Below are positions 3,577 to 13,216 of a DNA stretch of 21,215 bases, piece by piece. The translations under genes were made by a program, and so were the position numbers. Under the pieces are notes generated by a model. The model was not told the origin of the DNA and did not search any database. It saw only the letters and a list, made by a program, of their open reading frames with translations. This stretch comes from a virus, in the IMG/VR virus record IMGVR_UViG_3300009441_000064, positions 1-21,215 of that record. The stretch is one strand, 5' to 3'. Position 1 is the stretch's first letter. Every line of letters begins with the position of its first letter.

Positions 3577-4779
3577 ATGAGAATCATTGGAATTAACTCC
3601 AGTCACGACACTTCACTTTGCATTATGGAAGACGGAGTCGTCAGAGAACTCTTCGAAGAAGAAAGAGAACGTAGAGACAAATACTATTCACCCAAATTAG
3701 ACGAACCCGAACTACACGTAGTTAATTCTAAAGGCCTTGCAGATGCATTGACCAATGAAGACGGTGAACCCTGTGGTGAGTTAGTCTTTGCTTCGTTTGA
3801 CAGACGTGACATGAAGCTTCACATGGATAAAGAATACATTATGGACAATCGTTTGATTGCAGAAGACCTTGCAGTTGCATTAGCCAAATCACAATTAACC
3901 ACCGCACGTATCGAAGAACTCAAAGAAGAGTTTCCTAAACTAGGAATGAATGAAGAGTGGATGGAAGAAATGGATGAAACTATTCATGATGCTATGTGCA
4001 AACAGTTTGACAATATGGATGAGTATCATTACGATACCGAACATCATATGTATCATGCATACAGTGGATACTATCTATCACCCTTCTTTGAACGTGGTGA
4101 GGATGCCATTGCGATTGCATGGGACGGCGGTGGTGCAAAGAGTTACCATGAGACCCACCCCAACTATCAAGAGATAGAATCTATATGGTCTTGCAAGTTT
4201 GCAGATAAAACAATTACACCCCAGTGGAAGAAGATGTCTAATCATCGTACCCTAGGTGACATTGCATCTACTTACTTTCCTAACATGTATTATGATTCTG
4301 CTCATTGTTTAACAGACGAAGAGATTACTATGGATGGTATCGACGTGGTGTTAACTAGCTTCCCTTCTAGCGGTATGAACTTCAGTAACATGTCATATGC
4401 CTTCGGTGCAGATACTCAAGGTAGAGCAGCGGGTAAGGTCATGGGAATGGCATCCTATGGTAGACTCATCGAGTCCCAACCCGATAGACACGACAGACAT
4501 ACCGTTGCACAGATGTGTGAAGAGACATCATTTAATAATGCATGTAACGTAATAAGAAAGGCAATGGAATATAATCCCGATTGCAAGAACCTAGTCCTCA
4601 GTGGTGGGTTCAGTTTAAACTGTACTAATAATTATAAGTACCTACGAGAGTTTCCCGAATTAAATATATTCGTTGACACAGTTCCCCATGATTGTGGTAA
4701 TGCAGTCGGAGCTGCGTACTGGTTATATTGGAACATTGAAGCAGGTAAGCAAGATACATCAACAGGAGATACAGAATGA
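3577..4779 (+). CDS. Carbamoyltransferase, N-terminal (Kae1-like) subunit
   Basis: This 400-aa protein is the N-terminal half of a NodU/CmcH/TobZ-type O-carbamoyltransferase, the part that in known members makes carbamoyl-adenylate from carbamoyl phosphate and ATP. It opens with MRIIGINSSHDTSLCIMEDG, the family's ATPase-like first strand. An HxxxH metal motif is visible in EHHMYHAYSGYY, followed by the glycine motif AIAWDGGGAKS and the nucleotide-binding SGGFSLNC and PHDCGNAVGAA. The gene ends right after this domain; the transferase domain is in the next gene, joined by ATGA (4776-4779). A phage enzyme could carbamoylate a sugar of the host surface or a nucleobase or sugar on phage DNA; the sequence does not say which. 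No good SD precedes the ATG. Confidence 0.85.
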   Translation: MRIIGINSSHDTSLCIMEDGVVRELFEEERERRDKYYSPKLDEPELHVVNSKGLADALTNEDGEPCGELVFASFDRRDMKLHMDKEYIMDNRLIAEDLAVALAKSQLTTARIEELKEEFPKLGMNEEWMEEMDETIHDAMCKQFDNMDEYHYDTEHHMYHAYSGYYLSPFFERGEDAIAIAWDGGGAKSYHETHPNYQEIESIWSCKFADKTITPQWKKMSNHRTLGDIASTYFPNMYYDSAHCLTDEEITMDGIDVVLTSFPSSGMNFSNMSYAFGADTQGRAAGKVMGMASYGRLIESQPDRHDRHTVAQMCEETSFNNACNVIRKAMEYNPDCKNLVLSGGFSLNCTNNYKYLREFPELNIFVDTVPHDCGNAVGAAYWLYWNIEAGKQDTSTGDTE

Positions 4780-5420
4780 TTGTCACGGAAGTAGTAAGAG
4801 ATTTAGATGAAGTCATAAGACTTCTAACCGATGAAGAACAAGTCATTGGTATGTTCCAAGGGCCAAGTGAATGGGGCCCACGTGCATTAGGTAATCGTTC
4901 AATATTATTTGACCCTACCAATTCGAATGCAAAACAAATTGTTAATACCATTAAGAAGAGAGAATATTATAGACCCTTTGCTGGAACTGTATTAAAAGAA
5001 AGAGCATCCGAATATTTTGAAATGCTTCAGTTAGAAGAGTCACCTTACATGTCATTTGCAATTCAATGTAAAGAGAAAGCATACAAAGAGATTCCTTCCA
5101 TCGTTCATGCCGACGGTACATGTAGAATACAAACAGTAACCGAAGAACAAAATAAAAACTATTATAATTTAATTAAAGCATTAGGTGAAAAGAATGGCAC
5201 CCCCATTGTATTTAATACTTCATTTAATTTAGGTGGTGAAGCTTTAGTTGAAACTATCTTCGATGCAATCGATACATGTAATCGTTCTATGATTAACTTC
5301 TTGTATGTACCCGAAGACCAAGAACAACATATCCCTTACGAGTTATTTAAACCTAAGTCAACTGAAGAAGCTTTAAAAAACTCTGCCGATGACCATGGTG
5401 TGTGGGACTCTGAAGTATAA
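4776..5420 (+). CDS. Carbamoyltransferase, C-terminal subunit
   Basis: This 214-aa protein matches the C-terminal transferase domain of the NodU/CmcH/TobZ family. GMFQGPSEWGPRALGNRSIL is the family signature, followed by YYRPFAGTVL, SPYMSFAIQ, HADGTCRIQTV and NGTPIVFNTSFNLGGEALV, all in the expected order. In most relatives both domains are in one chain of roughly 550-600 aa; here the break falls in the linker between domains. Its own SD (AGGAG 4764-4768, 7 nt before the ATG) and the ATGA overlap argue for a working two-subunit enzyme rather than a frameshifted pseudogene. Its end carries a TATAAATA promoter octamer. Confidence 0.85.
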   Translation: MIVTEVVRDLDEVIRLLTDEEQVIGMFQGPSEWGPRALGNRSILFDPTNSNAKQIVNTIKKREYYRPFAGTVLKERASEYFEMLQLEESPYMSFAIQCKEKAYKEIPSIVHADGTCRIQTVTEEQNKNYYNLIKALGEKNGTPIVFNTSFNLGGEALVETIFDAIDTCNRSMINFLYVPEDQEQHIPYELFKPKSTEEALKNSADDHGVWDSEV

Positions 5421-5440
5421 ATACTTCTATGATAGAAGTA
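5412..5440 (+). promoter_or_regulatory. Late promoter octamer with two competing hairpins at the Fe-S carrier start
   Basis: TATAAATA at 5416-5423 lies 5 nt before the ATG at 5429. GAAGTAT (5412-5418) can pair with ATACTTC (5421-5427), and TACTTCT (5422-5428) can pair with AGAAGTA (5434-5440), placing the ATG in a 5-nt loop. The two pairings share bases and exclude each other. A transcript starting near 5429 would contain neither hairpin; a read-through transcript would contain both. Confidence 0.45.
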
Positions 5441-5755
5441 ACAGACATTGCAATAGCAAAACTCATAGAGAAGAAAGTAGACTCAGTTAGAATGGGTGTT
5501 ACTGGTGGCGGTTGCAGTGGTTATGAATATGTCTTCGTGGAAGATGAATTCAAGGACGGAGACTTAGAGTTAGATTACGGTAAGTTTAAATTTTTAATAG
5601 ATACAATGAGTCAACCCTTTTTAAATGGAATGACTTTAGATTATGAACAACAGGGATTGAATGAGACGTTCACGTTTCAGAATCCAAATGAAGAAGCCAG
5701 TTGTGGTTGTGGAGTGAGTATTACATTTAATGAAGACATCGTCAGCAAAAGCTAA
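5429..5755 (+). CDS. A-type Fe-S cluster carrier (IscA/ErpA/HesB family)
   Basis: This 108-aa protein matches the A-type iron-sulfur carrier family in length and in its three cysteines: C29 in GGGCSGYEY and C92/C94 in ASCGCGVSITF, followed by the usual short tail. These proteins hold an Fe-S cluster and hand it to client enzymes in the cytoplasm. Phage copies may keep Fe-S enzymes supplied during infection; a possible client is the radical SAM protein at 11689-12663. There is no SD, and the ATG coincides with the expected start of a late transcript. The end overlaps the next gene by 26 nt. The family call is firm; the client is inferred. Confidence 0.9.
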   Translation: MIEVTDIAIAKLIEKKVDSVRMGVTGGGCSGYEYVFVEDEFKDGDLELDYGKFKFLIDTMSQPFLNGMTLDYEQQGLNETFTFQNPNEEASCGCGVSITFNEDIVSKS

Positions 5756-6113
5756 AGGTCGTAAACTACAACAGTGGTTCCGTGACTTACTCGTAGAGAA
5801 ACTTGACCTAGACCCCGAGGATTCAGAGTCTAGACCCATGGGTTCTCAAGGTGAAGATATTATATTAGGGACAGAGTCTAGAAGATTGTTTCCATATAGC
5901 ATCGAATGTAAAAACCAAGAAGCAGTTAATGTTTGGAATGCATATGCACAAGCAGAAAGTAATTGTGGGAAGTACGAACCGATTGTTTGTATTAAAAGAA
6001 ATAGAAGTAAACCATTAGTGTTGGTGGATGCAGAATACTTTGTTGCATTACATAAGAAACCACTAACTGATTTAGAAGTACAAGCCATAGAGGTGGGATT
6101 AAAGAAACTATGA
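5730..6113 (+). CDS. PD-(D/E)XK / resolvase-like endonuclease
   Basis: This 127-aa protein has the pattern of a small restriction-fold nuclease: a basic N-terminal helix (KAKGRKLQQWFRDLL), then SQGEDIIL with E42/D43, then the core IECKNQ with E59-x-K61, then WNAYAQAESN with a helical Gln as in archaeal Hjc-like Holliday junction resolvases. A final YFVALHK segment is typical of phage members. Likely roles are junction resolution or repair; a homing or host-DNA role cannot be excluded. The ATG at 5730 lies within the end of the Fe-S carrier gene, and its stop overlaps the next ATG (ATGA 6110-6113). Confidence 0.65.
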   Translation: MKTSSAKAKGRKLQQWFRDLLVEKLDLDPEDSESRPMGSQGEDIILGTESRRLFPYSIECKNQEAVNVWNAYAQAESNCGKYEPIVCIKRNRSKPLVLVDAEYFVALHKKPLTDLEVQAIEVGLKKL

Positions 6114-7492
6114 AATCGTTCCAAGAAATGATTCAAGAAGATACAGTCAGTAAGACCGACCCTTATCGCCTCGTAGTTCTCGCTGAGAGACCGAAGAAAC
6201 AATCCAAGAACTCAACCTCAGGCAAGATAGTTAAAGTTGCTGAGAAGATGGGTATGGACGTTTACAACGTGCGTATCAATGGTGCATACTTAGAACGTGA
6301 TGAAGACAGTGGAAGTATTACTATTCACAATGCAGACGATGAGAAAGGATTCGAAGTTGATGCAGATACATTAGTCATGATTCGTGGTGGTGTAACTAGT
6401 AAAGATTCATACCTCGATTTAATCTCACAGATTGAACGCTACGGCATTGCAACGTGCAACCCTAGGGAATGTATCGAAGTTTGTTCAGACAAGTTTAGAA
6501 CGTACCTCAGACTGCAAGAGATAGGTCTTAACCAACCTAAGACAGTATTGATTCCTAACGATGAAAAGGATACTGTAGACAGAGCCCATGAAGCATTAGA
6601 CAATGACTTCCCGATGGTACTTAAAACATTACAGGGTTCCAAGGGTGTTGGTGTTCTATTAATTGAAACAGAACGTTCACTACAATCACAGGTCAGCTTG
6701 ATTTATAAGATTGACCCTTACTGTGATATCCTATTACAAGAATACATCGAGTCAGATTACGATGTACGTGTTGTCATTGTCAACAGAGAAATCGTTGGTG
6801 CAATGAGACGAAACAAAATTACAGATGACTTCAGAAGTAATGTATCCCAAGGTGCAGAGGCTGAAGAAGTTAAGTTAACAGAACTAGAGATGGACGTTTG
6901 CCTAAGAGCTAGCAAAGCCGTGAACGGACAATGGTGTGGTGTCGACTTTATTCCTAGCAAAAACAGAAAAACAGAACCACCATACATTCTAGAAGTAAAT
7001 CATTCGCCAGGCACAGAGGGAATCTCCTCAGTCATTGGTGAAGACATTGTTAAGAAAGTTTTAAAGCTCTACAGAGATAGAGACATGTGGAAGAGGTCAC
7101 CAACAGAATGTGGTGTATTAGAAACCATAGAGATTGAAGGAGTTGAAATGACAGCAAAGATGGATACAGGTAATTCCGTATCGGCTTGTTCCCTTCATGC
7201 AGAAGATATTAAGATAAGTGGTAAGAAAGTATCTTGGACAACAGAGGGTGTTAAGTATAATAAACCCCTAATAAGAATGGTTCAACTATTGAAACCAGCA
7301 GAGGAACGTCCAGTAGTAGAATTAGAATTAAACTTTCTAAACACTATATATGAGCAAGAAGTCAGTTTAGATACTAGAGGGATGATACCCTTTCTTGCAA
7401 ATCGTGATTTAATGCAACGTGCAAACTTAATGATTAATCCTGCTCGTAAGTTTATGATTACGAACAAGAGAGATGAGAAAGACGATAGTTAA
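6110..7492 (+). CDS. RimK-type ATP-grasp ligase fused to a RimB-like aspartic protease domain
   Basis: This 460-aa protein joins two domains. Residues about 18-325 form an ATP-grasp ligase of the RimK (glutamate ligase) type: a pre-ATP-grasp domain, then K172 in FPMVLKTLQGSKGVGV, ILLQEYI (210-211), R220, VDF with D279, and LEVNHSPGTEG with E295/N297. Residues about 334-450 match the retropepsin-like RimB/PF05618 family: AKMDTGNSVSACSLHAEDI (D352-T353-G354) and a closing IPFLANRDLMQRANLMINP. In bacteria RimK adds glutamates to a protein C-terminus (ribosomal protein S6 is the best known target) and RimB trims them. A fusion could both extend and trim a tail. The target is unknown. Translation is coupled to the nuclease gene through ATGA. 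Confidence 0.85.
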   Translation: MKSFQEMIQEDTVSKTDPYRLVVLAERPKKQSKNSTSGKIVKVAEKMGMDVYNVRINGAYLERDEDSGSITIHNADDEKGFEVDADTLVMIRGGVTSKDSYLDLISQIERYGIATCNPRECIEVCSDKFRTYLRLQEIGLNQPKTVLIPNDEKDTVDRAHEALDNDFPMVLKTLQGSKGVGVLLIETERSLQSQVSLIYKIDPYCDILLQEYIESDYDVRVVIVNREIVGAMRRNKITDDFRSNVSQGAEAEEVKLTELEMDVCLRASKAVNGQWCGVDFIPSKNRKTEPPYILEVNHSPGTEGISSVIGEDIVKKVLKLYRDRDMWKRSPTECGVLETIEIEGVEMTAKMDTGNSVSACSLHAEDIKISGKKVSWTTEGVKYNKPLIRMVQLLKPAEERPVVELELNFLNTIYEQEVSLDTRGMIPFLANRDLMQRANLMINPARKFMITNKRDEKDDS

Positions 7493-7541: not shown

Positions 7542-8255
7542 ATGATTATGAAAACTGAAACAAAAACAATTAACATCCAAGAACGGATGAGAGAAAAAGC
7601 ACTGGATGCCTTCAGTGATGTAGAAGCCCAAATAGATAAATGGATTGACAATAAGAAGTCAGACTTTTCTATGTACAAATATCTAGTTAGATTACAGTAC
7701 AGTGGAAAGGTAGTTTACTTTATGAAGGGACAACTTACGGATGCAATTGCAGAAGTAAAGAACGAGGAGAAGTGTGACCAGTTAGAGGAAGCTTTTAATT
7801 TCCTAACTGCAACACAGAAAAAGAATTACATTAAATTCTTAGAAGGAATCGAATCCGACATCAAAAGATTTTGTGATGAGTATACTCCAGTCAGAAAAAG
7901 AAAACCATTGACACCAAAGAGAATGGTAAGGAAGCTTCCGTTCCTCGAAGAGTGGGAAGGTTACAAGTCTATAGACAAGGAAGAGATACCACGTGCATTA
8001 GACCTATTCACATACAACACAGCATCCAAGAAGTTTACACACTTCAGTGGTCATCTATCCGTTAAGGGTTCAAGGATTACTGGTTACGACTCATGTAAAG
8101 AAAAGACCTTGACAGATTGGAAGTTGCTTGATAGAATAGTACAAGGTGGTAATATAATTGCTCGTGGATTTATGGATGAGATTCCTAGGTCGAAGTTGAA
8201 AGACGGAAACGACTTGATTACCAAAAATACATTATTATTAAAAGTGATTAAATGA
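7542..8255 (+). CDS. Hypothetical protein upstream of RNase H, 237 aa
   Basis: A charged soluble protein, mainly helical in the first 120 residues, with a basic patch (TPVRKRKPLTPKRMVRKLPF, about 125-144) that may contact nucleic acid. A C-terminal part probably contains beta strands (FTHFSGHLSVKGSRITGYD). Two in-frame ATGs (7542, 7548) are possible; the first sits at the predicted +1 of the promoter and no SD precedes either. It overlaps RNase H by ATGA (8252-8255), suggesting a replication or recombination role, but no family is recognised. Confidence 0.75.
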   Translation: MIMKTETKTINIQERMREKALDAFSDVEAQIDKWIDNKKSDFSMYKYLVRLQYSGKVVYFMKGQLTDAIAEVKNEEKCDQLEEAFNFLTATQKKNYIKFLEGIESDIKRFCDEYTPVRKRKPLTPKRMVRKLPFLEEWEGYKSIDKEEIPRALDLFTYNTASKKFTHFSGHLSVKGSRITGYDSCKEKTLTDWKLLDRIVQGGNIIARGFMDEIPRSKLKDGNDLITKNTLLLKVIK

Positions 8256-11335: not shown

Positions 11336-11744
11336 GGATTCAGAAGTACTACCATTAGACCTTAACCAAATAAGTCCAAGATACGAAGAACGTTTTTCTC
11401 AAATAGAGGATGACGTTTTTCGGTTTAACTTCCCCCTAGAATATACAATCCGCTTAGGCGTTCAATACGATACACCTCACATCTTTCTTTATAAAGAAGA
11501 TGATGAGTTAGTGTTCTCTAATCACGATTTAGAGAAAGACGGATTACTAATCAGACCATATCTTTATAATAGACATGGTGACCCAAAGAGTTGTATGATA
11601 AACGAAAAAGAGTCAGCACAATTCTATGTCATTCCCCGATACTTTGCAGAAGGATTTAATGTAGGTGATACTATCCAGTTTTCTTACCATGAACAACTTT
11701 TGGATGAACAAGAAAGACACATTAGGTGTAGACGTGTCACGTAA
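11298..11744 (+). CDS. Hypothetical protein, 148 aa
   Basis: The frame is open before 11298, with a possible GTG at 11280. ATG 11298 is chosen because a GAGAG lies 8 nt upstream; ATG 11304 is also possible. It overlaps the preceding gene by about 38 nt. The protein looks globular and beta-rich (DDVFRFNFPLEYTIRLGVQY, HIFLYKEDDELVFSNHDLEK) and ends RHIRCRRVT. No domain is recognised. The long overlaps at both ends suggest co-translation with its neighbours. Confidence 0.65.
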   Translation: MTMILCETVDTSKDSEVLPLDLNQISPRYEERFSQIEDDVFRFNFPLEYTIRLGVQYDTPHIFLYKEDDELVFSNHDLEKDGLLIRPYLYNRHGDPKSCMINEKESAQFYVIPRYFAEGFNVGDTIQFSYHEQLLDEQERHIRCRRVT

Positions 11745-12663
11745 CATTCCAGTCACGGCAGTTGACCAACACGACTTCTTAGAACACCGTAGAAAACAGG
11801 AAGCTCTACACTGGGGCAGACAAGACATGTCAGAACTGAACGAACTCAGTTCTATCCTTACAGTCGAAGTTAACACTACAGAGTTATGCAACAGGACGTG
11901 TTCGTTTTGTCCAAGAGCAAATCCCGAAGTGTTTCCAAATAGAAACTTACACATGACCCCCAAGGGTGCAGAACTTATTGGAAAGGAATTACATTCAAAT
12001 GGATTTAGAGGTAAGATATCTTTAAGCGGTTACGGAGAGAATCTACTTAACCCAAGATTTAAAGAAATTGTACATACATTCAGAAGAACAGTTCCTTATG
12101 CAACATTAGAATGTAATACAAACGGTGATAAACTAACAAGGGAATATGCAGAAGAGTTATTTGAGTTTAGTGGATTAGATTTACTTTACATTAATCTATA
12201 TGATGGCATCGAACAGATGGAACACTTCGAGAAAGTTATGAAGACCATCCCCGAAACCAAATATAAGTATCGTATGCATTGGGGAGACTTTGAGAACCAT
12301 GGTCTCATTCTAAACAACCGTAGCGGAGTTATGGATTGGGTTGGAGTAGAAGACAGTACGATAGAAGCACTCCAAGGTAAACCATGTCACTACCCATTCT
12401 ATAAGATGTTTGTTGATTGGAACGGAGACGTGCTATTCTGTTCAAACGATTGGGGTAGAGAACATGTCGTAGGTAACTTAATGCATACTTCATTACACGA
12501 TGTGTGGTTTAGTAAACCTATGAATAAGATTAGAAAGAAATTGATGAAGGGTGACAGAAGTATGTCCCCTTGTAACAAGTGTAGTGTAGATGGAAGTCTA
12601 TTCGGCAAACAATCGTTTGACATTGTCAAGGAATATTATGAGAGTAGCAATAACAGGAAGTAG
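11689..12663 (+). CDS. Radical SAM protein with SPASM-like C-terminus
   Basis: CNRTCSFC (about residues 67-74) is the CxxxCxxC [4Fe-4S] motif of radical SAM enzymes, preceded by the usual strand (ILTVEVNTTEL) and followed by ISLSGYGENLLNP, which resembles the family's glycine motif. The C-terminal part has cysteines in GKPCHYPF, VLFCSNDWG and SPCNKCSVDG, as in SPASM/twitch domains that bind extra clusters. Such enzymes modify peptides, sugars or tRNA; the substrate is unknown. The start is uncertain: ATG 11689 is used; ATG 11704 or GTG 11665 (AGAAGGA 10 nt upstream) are alternatives. The SDR-like gene that follows overlaps it by 26 nt, so the two may share a pathway. Confidence 0.85.
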   Translation: MNNFWMNKKDTLGVDVSRNIPVTAVDQHDFLEHRRKQEALHWGRQDMSELNELSSILTVEVNTTELCNRTCSFCPRANPEVFPNRNLHMTPKGAELIGKELHSNGFRGKISLSGYGENLLNPRFKEIVHTFRRTVPYATLECNTNGDKLTREYAEELFEFSGLDLLYINLYDGIEQMEHFEKVMKTIPETKYKYRMHWGDFENHGLILNNRSGVMDWVGVEDSTIEALQGKPCHYPFYKMFVDWNGDVLFCSNDWGREHVVGNLMHTSLHDVWFSKPMNKIRKKLMKGDRSMSPCNKCSVDGSLFGKQSFDIVKEYYESSNNRK

Positions 12664-13216
12664 TGGTTTAGCAAAAGTCATAGGTGACATGATTGCAAAG
12701 ACTGCTTATATCGGAACGATTCATATCGTTGGACATCACCGCGTTGAAGACATCTTAGATTCTGATTGGGTGTGGAAAGAGAACGATGTCTTTATCAATT
12801 GTGCTCACGTAGAGTTCGAACAATGCAAACTGTTAATGGAAGCTTTCGAAGCTTGGAAAGACGACGAGACTAAAACTATCATCAACATTTCATCCAGAGC
12901 AGCTCAACCAAACATCTCAAAGGGTTACATGTATGCAGCTCAGAAAGCTGCGTTGAATCATTTGGCAAGTAACCTAACATGGAACTCAGATAAGAAATGT
13001 AGAATCACTACAATGAATCTAGGGTTAATGAACCATGACACCTTACCCAGTATTTCCCATAACGAGGTCGCATCATGGATATACAGACATTGTACTGGAA
13101 GCAAACATATCGACGTACCCGAGATAACCTTGCAAAACGCTGCAAACTACCAAGACGTGCAATCAGATAAAGATACATTAAGAACTCTTGAATTTAATAG
13201 GAGTATATTTCCATAA
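12638..13216 (+). CDS. SDR-family NAD(P)-dependent oxidoreductase
   Basis: This 192-aa protein begins MRVAITGSSGLAKVIG, a Rossmann dinucleotide-binding turn. It continues with FINCAHVEF (N54, in the place of the NNAG motif), IINISSRAAQ (S85/S86) and Y99-x-x-x-K103 in YMYAAQKAAL: the Ser-Tyr-Lys core of short-chain dehydrogenases. It is shorter than the typical 250 aa. ATG 12638 is chosen because AAGGA lies 5 nt upstream. It overlaps the radical SAM gene by 26 nt. The substrate could be a sugar nucleotide or a small ketone; this is not determinable. Confidence 0.8.
   Translation: MRVAITGSSGLAKVIGDMIAKTAYIGTIHIVGHHRVEDILDSDWVWKENDVFINCAHVEFEQCKLLMEAFEAWKDDETKTIINISSRAAQPNISKGYMYAAQKAALNHLASNLTWNSDKKCRITTMNLGLMNHDTLPSISHNEVASWIYRHCTGSKHIDVPEITLQNAANYQDVQSDKDTLRTLEFNRSIFP

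What the first reader, a model, noticed from the sequence alone, without database searches (positions are those of the whole stretch)
6110..7492. RimK-type ligase and RimB-like protease fused in one phage protein
Seen: ATP-grasp motifs (K172, Q210/E211, D279, E295/N297) and, downstream in the same frame, the PF05618-type motif KMDTGNSVSACSLHAEDI with D352-T353-G354 and a matching closing segment. Known: in Pseudomonas RimK adds C-terminal glutamates to ribosomal protein S6 and RimB trims them. Inference: this phage carries both a writer and an eraser in one polypeptide, perhaps to edit the tails of host ribosomes or another protein during infection.
Basis: partly seen in the sequence, partly recalled or inferred. 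Interest (0 to 1): 0.75.

Follow-up and report, generated by a model that had tools for sequence, protein, structure and literature searches.

The report
Phage glutamate-tail ligase–protease fusion
A marine T4-like phage makes one protein joining an enzyme predicted to add glutamate tails to proteins with one predicted to cut such tails off; this kind of phage fusion was first noticed in 2008 but has never been tested, and the most attractive target is the host ribosome.

Summary
Window 6110-7492 (+) encodes one uninterrupted 460-aa protein: a RimK-family ATP-grasp ligase (TIGR00768, 171 bits, cut-off 143) followed by a PF05618/RimB-like retropepsin domain (28.2 bits, cut-off 27; predicted fold matches RloA, Z 13.0, and HIV protease, Z about 9.5). 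The catalytic D-T-G and key ligase metal/ATP residues are invariant in 68 distinct viral relatives. Three of four poly-glutamate-contacting basic residues of RloA are conserved. Both domains are under purifying selection. The domains stayed fused in all 67 uncut viral loci checked. The gene is common in marine myoviruses, including pelagiphage Mosig; the Yersinia phage YerA41 homologue was found in virions.

The architecture is not new. Monier et al. 2008 reported phage RimK with carboxy-terminal PF05618. Little et al. 2025 showed that RimB removes poly-glutamate and described bacterial RimBK hybrids with the opposite order. Added here: the writer-plus-eraser reading, conserved active sites, separation from bacterial hybrids, and linkage to phage bS21 and RegA.

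Most likely it is a bifunctional poly-α-glutamate ligase/endopeptidase. Host S6 is the leading acceptor but unproven; the S6-ligase equivalog model is not met.

The parts
6110..7492 (+). RimK-RimB fusion gene, 460 aa plus stop
   Evidence: open frame; PF08443 and PF05618 hits; relatives aligned over the full length
6161..6484 (+). N-terminal pre-ATP-grasp part (about residues 18-125), with T36 and R92 aligning with S14 and R64, which bind the poly-Glu chain in Pseudomonas RimK
   Evidence: profile alignment to 7qyr/7qys; R92 68/68, T36 T or S in 68/68; residue roles from PMC10092738
6485..7066 (+). ATP-grasp ligase domain, residues 126-319
   Evidence: PF08443 1.7e-35; TIGR00768 over cut-off; model matches RimK 7qyr/7qys, TM-score on target 0.81-0.86
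6623..6625 (+). K172, ATP-binding lysine
   Evidence: invariant 68/68
6944..7000 (+). D279, E295 and N297: metal / glutamate-site residues (D248, E260, N262 in Pseudomonas RimK numbering)
   Evidence: invariant 68/68; alignment to 7qyr
7109..7462 (+). RimB-like retropepsin domain, residues 334-451
   Evidence: PF05618 over gathering score; domain model pLDDT 81; Z 13.0 to RloA 9g58, 14.1 to 2pma, about 9.5 to HIV protease
7163..7174 (+). catalytic motif D352-T353-G354-N355
   Evidence: invariant 68/68 and 79/79 in the second scan; RimB has D-T-G-A
7157..7159 (+). K350, equivalent of RloA K46 (poly-Glu contact)
   Evidence: 66/68; alignment to 9g58; role from a structural model in PMC12239564
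7274..7276 (+). R389, equivalent of RloA R92 (Ala in RimB)
   Evidence: R in 53/68, K in 6
7307..7309 (+). R400, equivalent of RloA R114
   Evidence: 68/68
7376..7378 (+). R423, equivalent of RloA R137
   Evidence: 68/68
5730..6113 (+). PDDEXK/RusA-like nuclease gene overlapping the fusion's start by 4 nt (ATGA), so probably translationally coupled
   Evidence: next to the fusion in 23 of 56 viral loci
7542..8255 (+). conserved downstream neighbour of unknown function (phrog_11903)
   Evidence: downstream of the fusion in 27 viral loci

Best explanation
The gene encodes a bifunctional enzyme. The ATP-grasp half uses ATP to ligate glutamates, as a poly-alpha-glutamate chain, onto a C-terminal carboxylate. 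The retropepsin half, acting as a dimer, cuts poly-glutamate and may also stimulate the ligase, as RimB does. Covalent fusion keeps writer and eraser at 1:1, so the phage sets a tail length or turnover rate by itself. The most likely acceptor is host ribosomal protein S6, on the 30S platform next to bS18 and bS21, with the aim of shifting translation towards phage messages. Shown by sequence and predicted structure: both domains, intact active sites, conserved poly-Glu contacts, selection on both halves and retention of the fusion. Inferred: catalysis, poly-glutamate as substrate, and dimerisation. Hypothetical: S6 as acceptor. The confidence given is for the poly-glutamate ligase plus endopeptidase reading; S6 as main acceptor I put at about 0.35-0.4.
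For: Family models over curated cut-offs for both halves. Retropepsin fold by AlphaFold2, Foldseek and VIA-align, best against the poly-Glu proteases RloA/RloA2 and against Lpg0085. Invariant catalytic residues in both halves; R64, R189 and N262 of the RimK glutamate-chain site are conserved as R92, R220 and N297, and K46, R114 and R137 of the RloA poly-Glu channel as K350, R400 and R423. dN/dS well below 1 in both halves. No stand-alone protease in the viral loci parsed. PF05618 proteins RimB and RloA cleave poly-Glu, and RimB stimulates RimK (PMC11957791, PMC12239564). Bacterial rimB sits directly upstream of rimK in most of the loci fetched. Ribosome link: in one phage group the fusion abuts regA, a T4-type translational repressor (27 of 56 loci; Mosig). 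Phage bS21 is within about 6-16 kb in Mosig and the long contigs, and is present in 9 of 10 fusion-bearing contigs tested, against 0 of 9 relatives without the fusion. A phage precedent for modifying S6 is the T7 kinase (cited in PMC2530865).
Against: No biochemical data for any phage member. D-T-G-N replaces the usual D-T-G-A, and H215/R216 of the RimK lid loop are S246/Q247. The PRK10446 S6-ligase equivalog is far under its cut-off. The only hybrid assayed, D. psychrophila RimBK, cut poly-Glu but did not glutamylate Pseudomonas S6 (PMC11957791). The bS21 link is confounded by lineage and by physical linkage; GN1 has the fusion without bS21, and HTVC008M has bS21 without a RimK match. Melnitz phages keep only the ligase, so the eraser is dispensable somewhere. 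The host of this phage is not known, and no host S6 was examined.
Confidence: 0.62

Rival explanations
1. It makes and turns over free poly-alpha-glutamate rather than tagging a protein: the protease half mainly stimulates the ligase and trims product, shifting glutamate pools or osmotic state during infection.
For: RimK makes free poly-Glu and RimB is needed for it in Pseudomonas (PMC11957791). No phage-encoded acceptor with a conserved acidic tail was found among 69 shared genes.
Against: The best-known use of RimK is S6. The RegA and bS21 neighbourhood points to translation. Making free polymer costs ATP and glutamate without an obvious gain in a lytic cycle.
Confidence: 0.17
2. The ligase acts on a different acceptor (a phage protein, another host protein or a cofactor), as in other RimK-family enzymes (LysX, MptN, CofF), with the protease as a matching eraser.
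For: The family call is subfamily level; MptN, LysX and CofF models also match. The S6-ligase equivalog is not met. The phage clade is far from bacterial RimK (branch 2.5).
Against: A poly-Glu-type eraser domain fits a chain product, not a single glutamate on a cofactor. Screening two genomes gave no conserved acidic-tailed acceptor.
Confidence: 0.28
3. The retropepsin domain is a non-catalytic or structural module (regulator, oligomerisation part) and the protein is only a ligase.
For: D-T-G-N instead of D-T-G-A. The haloarchaeal RimK protein with the same domain order reads D-T-R, so its active site is degenerate. Melnitz lacks the domain.
Against: D-T-G is invariant in 68 of 68 phage fusions, as are two basic channel residues. 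dN/dS in the domain is about 0.05-0.25.
Confidence: 0.12
4. It is a virion enzyme injected with the DNA, acting on host components at the start of infection or on capsid proteins during assembly.
For: YerA41 lists a 'ribosomal protein modification protein' (g112) among particle-associated proteins (PMC7354516). Gene order after ribonucleotide reductase identifies it as the fusion YerA41_066.
Against: That particle list of 63 proteins includes ribonucleotide reductase, polymerases and helicases, so carry-over is possible. There are no proteomic data for the marine group.
Confidence: 0.15

Closest known systems
Putative phage RimK with carboxy-terminal DUF785/PF05618 in Global Ocean Sampling contigs (Monier et al. 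2008, PMC2530865)
   Same: Same domain order, marine T4-like contigs, regA next door in one, distant from bacterial RimK
   Different: Described only as an extra domain of unknown function; no protease active-site analysis and no writer/eraser reading. The window belongs to a second gene context (nuclease upstream, RNase H downstream).
Bacterial RimBK hybrid (Little et al. 2025, PMC11957791)
   Same: Ligase and poly-Glu protease in one chain
   Different: RimB is at the N-terminus there and in the three alphaproteobacterial hybrids whose order was parsed here. Phage fusions form a separate clade (100/100).
Pseudomonas RimK and RimB as separate proteins
   Same: Same two activities predicted; key residues shared
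   Different: Separate genes with rimB upstream of rimK; D-T-G-A; about 26% identity of the ligase half to solved RimK
RloA secreted retropepsins (PMC12239564; PDB 9g58, 9g59)
   Same: Closest solved relatives of the protease half (with 2pma); basic poly-Glu channel residues kept
   Different: RloA is secreted and belongs to an operon with an inactive transglutaminase
Haloarchaeal RimK/LysX protein with C-terminal PF05618-like part (Natronosalvus, L429)
   Same: Same domain order
   Different: PF05618 score under its cut-off; D-T-R instead of D-T-G
Cyanophage and Melnitz RimK-only proteins
   Same: Phage-encoded RimK-type ATP-grasp
   Different: No protease domain; the one cyanophage RimK in the tree groups with bacterial RimK, though on a very long branch

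Membership tests
RimK family alpha-L-glutamate ligase (TIGR00768 / PF08443) | score over the curated cut-off | tested here: met
   171.2 against 143.4 bits; PF08443 122.8 against 21 bits
RimK family alpha-L-glutamate ligase (TIGR00768 / PF08443) | ATP/metal and glutamate-chain residues of RimK kept | tested here: met
   K172, E211, R220, N244, D279, E295, N297, R92 68/68; the S7 and R8 region is not conserved
Ribosomal protein S6-L-glutamate ligase (PRK10446 / NF007764 equivalog) | score over the equivalog cut-off | tested here: not met
   96 against 331 bits
Ribosomal protein S6-L-glutamate ligase (PRK10446 / NF007764 equivalog) | glutamylates S6 | not testable with these tools
   needs enzyme assay or mass spectrometry
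PF05618 / RimB-RloA retropepsin-like proteases | score over the Pfam gathering threshold | tested here: met
   28.2 against 27 bits for the window; 20 of 22 relatives match at E of 0.01 or better
PF05618 / RimB-RloA retropepsin-like proteases | retropepsin fold | tested here: met
   predicted model, Z 14.1 to 2pma, 13.0 to 9g58
PF05618 / RimB-RloA retropepsin-like proteases | catalytic D-T-G | tested here: met
   68/68; followed by N instead of A
PF05618 / RimB-RloA retropepsin-like proteases | active homodimer that cuts poly-glutamate | not testable with these tools
   basic channel residues kept; no assay
Bacterial RimBK hybrid | RimB domain N-terminal to RimK | tested here: not met
   order is RimK then RimB; bacterial hybrids parsed have the reverse
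Phage RimK with C-terminal PF05618 (Monier et al. 2008) | PF05618 on the carboxy side of a RimK-like ATP-grasp in T4-like marine contigs | tested here: met
   description in PMC2530865
Rlo (RloABC) system | secreted protease encoded with an inactive transglutaminase and an ATP-grasp protein | not tested
   here the protease is fused to the ligase; no signal-peptide test was run

The most novel reading that the evidence does not exclude
These phages carry a ribosome-retuning kit: their own bS21 plus a single-chain enzyme that writes and erases glutamate tails on host bS6, its neighbour on the 30S platform, to favour phage translation; in some phages the enzyme travels in the virion.
Probability: 0.2. 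Interest if true: 0.85.

Novelty: new member of a known kind. Interest (0 to 1): 0.5.

Why it matters
If the activities are real, a common group of marine phages, including one that infects the very abundant SAR11 bacteria, carries a self-contained reversible protein-tail editor. It would give a clean single-chain system for studying how a writer and an eraser set poly-glutamate length, and a direct test of whether phages reprogram ribosomes by modifying S6. It also corrects annotations: Mosig's copy is called glutathione synthetase and YerA41's a structural protein.

Tried and rejected
Frame artefact or chimeric assembly: rejected, since relatives at 90, 73 and 45% identity are collinear over the whole length. 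Bacterial genomes with the same domain order: the two MAG hits (L025, L026) lie on phage contigs (RNase H/nuclease or RegA/clamp/DNA polymerase neighbours). Known defence protein: no PADLOC match. Phage-encoded acceptor with a shared acidic C-terminus: none convincing among 69 reciprocal best hits of two phage genomes; the only match was a 762-aa protein whose tail looks like that of ribonucleotide reductase. Host S6 tails: S6 genes were found in relatives of the TMED93 MAG and nine tails read, but that organism is not shown to be the host, so nothing is concluded. Near-identical phage in GenBank: none by megablast. The no-fusion result for DNA-polymerase relatives had no positive control within that search. 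A first regex count of stand-alone proteases was faulty and was replaced.

Full report
What is there. The frame at 6110-7492 (+) is a single 460-aa open frame starting at an ATG that overlaps the stop of the upstream nuclease gene by four bases. Pfam places RimK (PF08443) at residues 126-319 with E 1.7e-35 and Zn_protease (PF05618) at 338-451 with 28.2 bits, just above its gathering score of 27. NCBIfam gives TIGR00768 RimK family at 171.2 bits (cut-off 143.4), but the specific S6-ligase equivalog only 96 of 331 bits; RloA-type retropepsin models match the C-terminal part weakly.

Structure. AlphaFold2 with 26 viral relatives gives mean pLDDT 79.9. The N-terminal two thirds match RimK crystal structures with TM-score on the target of 0.81-0.86. 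The C-terminal 133 residues modelled alone (pLDDT 81) match Lpg0085 2pma (Z 14.1), RloA 9g58 (Z 13.0), RloA2 9g59 (Z 12.6), and retroviral proteases at about Z 9.5-10. The retropepsin fold is therefore supported by prediction.

Active sites. In 68 distinct full-length viral fusions, K172, E211, R220, R242, N244, D279, E295, N297 and R92 are invariant, and D352, T353, G354 and N355 are invariant. Aligned to Pseudomonas RimK, R92, R220 and N297 correspond to R64, R189 and N262, which contact the bound glutamate chain in 7QYR (PMC10092738). Lid residues H215 and R216 are replaced by S246 and Q247. Aligned to RloA, K350, R400 and R423 correspond to K46, R114 and R137, basic residues modelled to hold poly-glutamate (PMC12239564); they are present in 66, 68 and 68 of 68. 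The equivalent of R92 of RloA, R389, is R in 53 and K in 6. The residue after D-T-G is N where RimB has A.

Selection and retention. Pairwise dN/dS between relatives is 0.04-0.24 in the ligase domain and 0.05-0.25 in the protease domain. In a scan that used only the protease domain as query, 67 loci had at least 300 in-frame residues upstream, 12 were cut by a sequence end, one was unparsed, and none was stand-alone. Short phage proteins matching the protease fold alone exist in BFVD as distant structural matches.

Distribution. Melnitz phages have the ligase only and fall inside the phage clade with weak support. Two gene contexts occur: nuclease upstream and phrog_11903 gene downstream (the window's type, 23 upstream cases), and regA directly upstream with DNA polymerase downstream (Mosig type, 27 upstream cases).

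Origin. The phage ligase domains form a clade (100/100) apart from bacterial RimK and from bacterial RimBK hybrids, though branches are long. Bacterial rimB lies just upstream of rimK in most loci fetched, and bacterial hybrids read RimB-RimK. The phage order is the reverse. Haloarchaea have the same order (PMC2530865), but the example examined here has a degraded motif and a sub-threshold PF05618 score.

Prior knowledge. Monier et al. 2008 (PMC2530865) found more than a hundred Global Ocean Sampling contigs with phage-like RimK, noted PF05618 on the carboxy side in several, noted regA next to one, and suggested modification of host translation, citing T7 phosphorylation of S6. Little et al. 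[quoted passage not shown] their hybrid cut poly-glutamate but did not glutamylate Pseudomonas S6. Joining these two lines is what makes the phage protein a predicted writer-plus-eraser. I found no paper in the held library that does so, but that library is not complete.

Possible target. Evidence for the ribosome is circumstantial. Phage bS21 genes occur in Mosig, in Melnitz and in 9 of 10 fusion-bearing contigs tested, and in none of 9 T4-like relatives without the fusion. Where both positions are known the fusion and bS21 lie about 6-16 kb apart, and all these genomes are related, so this is not independent evidence. bS6, bS18 and bS21 line the same 30S platform (PMC9976891; shown as a pocket in Bacteroidia). 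By collinearity with the 146-kb relative G001, bS21 of the window's phage should lie just beyond the window's right end, after gp32. No conserved acidic-tailed phage protein was found that could serve as acceptor.

Virion association. YerA41 g112, 'ribosomal protein modification protein', is middle-expressed and marked as particle-associated (PMC7354516). Its position after the ribonucleotide reductase genes identifies it as YerA41_066, the fusion. Carry-over in the particle preparation cannot be excluded.

Verdict. Real, conserved, probably bifunctional; a new member of a phage fusion family first seen in 2008. Poly-glutamate ligase plus endopeptidase is the best reading (0.62). S6 as main acceptor is plausible but unproven (about 0.35-0.4). 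The rivals overlap with the best explanation and with each other (they differ in acceptor or place of action), so the confidences are not meant to sum to one.

Noticed in passing
window 3577-4779 and 4776-5420: A carbamoyltransferase (NodU/TobZ type) is split into N- and C-terminal genes overlapping by 4 nt; the two halves also map as separate matches in the 146-kb relative G001.
   Followed up: partly
G001:C1:11244-11390, G002-G004, G280, G281, G283-G285, Mosig L001:3590-3799: Phage bS21 ribosomal protein genes accompany the fusion in the marine lineage.
   Followed up: partly
window 5429-5755, 11665-12663, 12590-13216: Other auxiliary genes: A-type Fe-S carrier (IscA-like), radical SAM/SPASM protein and a short-chain dehydrogenase, the last two overlapping.
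   Followed up: no
L025 and L026: Contigs in a Sphingobacteriales MAG and in the TMED93 alphaproteobacterial MAG carry the phage fusion with phage neighbours, so these bins hold phage contigs.
   Followed up: yes
L001:8995-10380; L288:2704-4125: Public annotations mislead: Mosig fusion is named glutathione synthetase, YerA41/GN1 fusion is named structural protein.
   Followed up: yes
L288:5539-5913: YerA41 has a gene annotated as mono-ADP-ribosylating toxin a few genes after the fusion.
   Followed up: no
L003:82-1131: Melnitz methylophages keep a RimK-only relative inside the phage clade, suggesting loss of the protease domain (tree support weak).
   Followed up: partly
L429:2489-3814: Haloarchaeal plasmid RimK/LysX protein has a C-terminal PF05618-like part with D-T-R in place of D-T-G.
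   Followed up: partly
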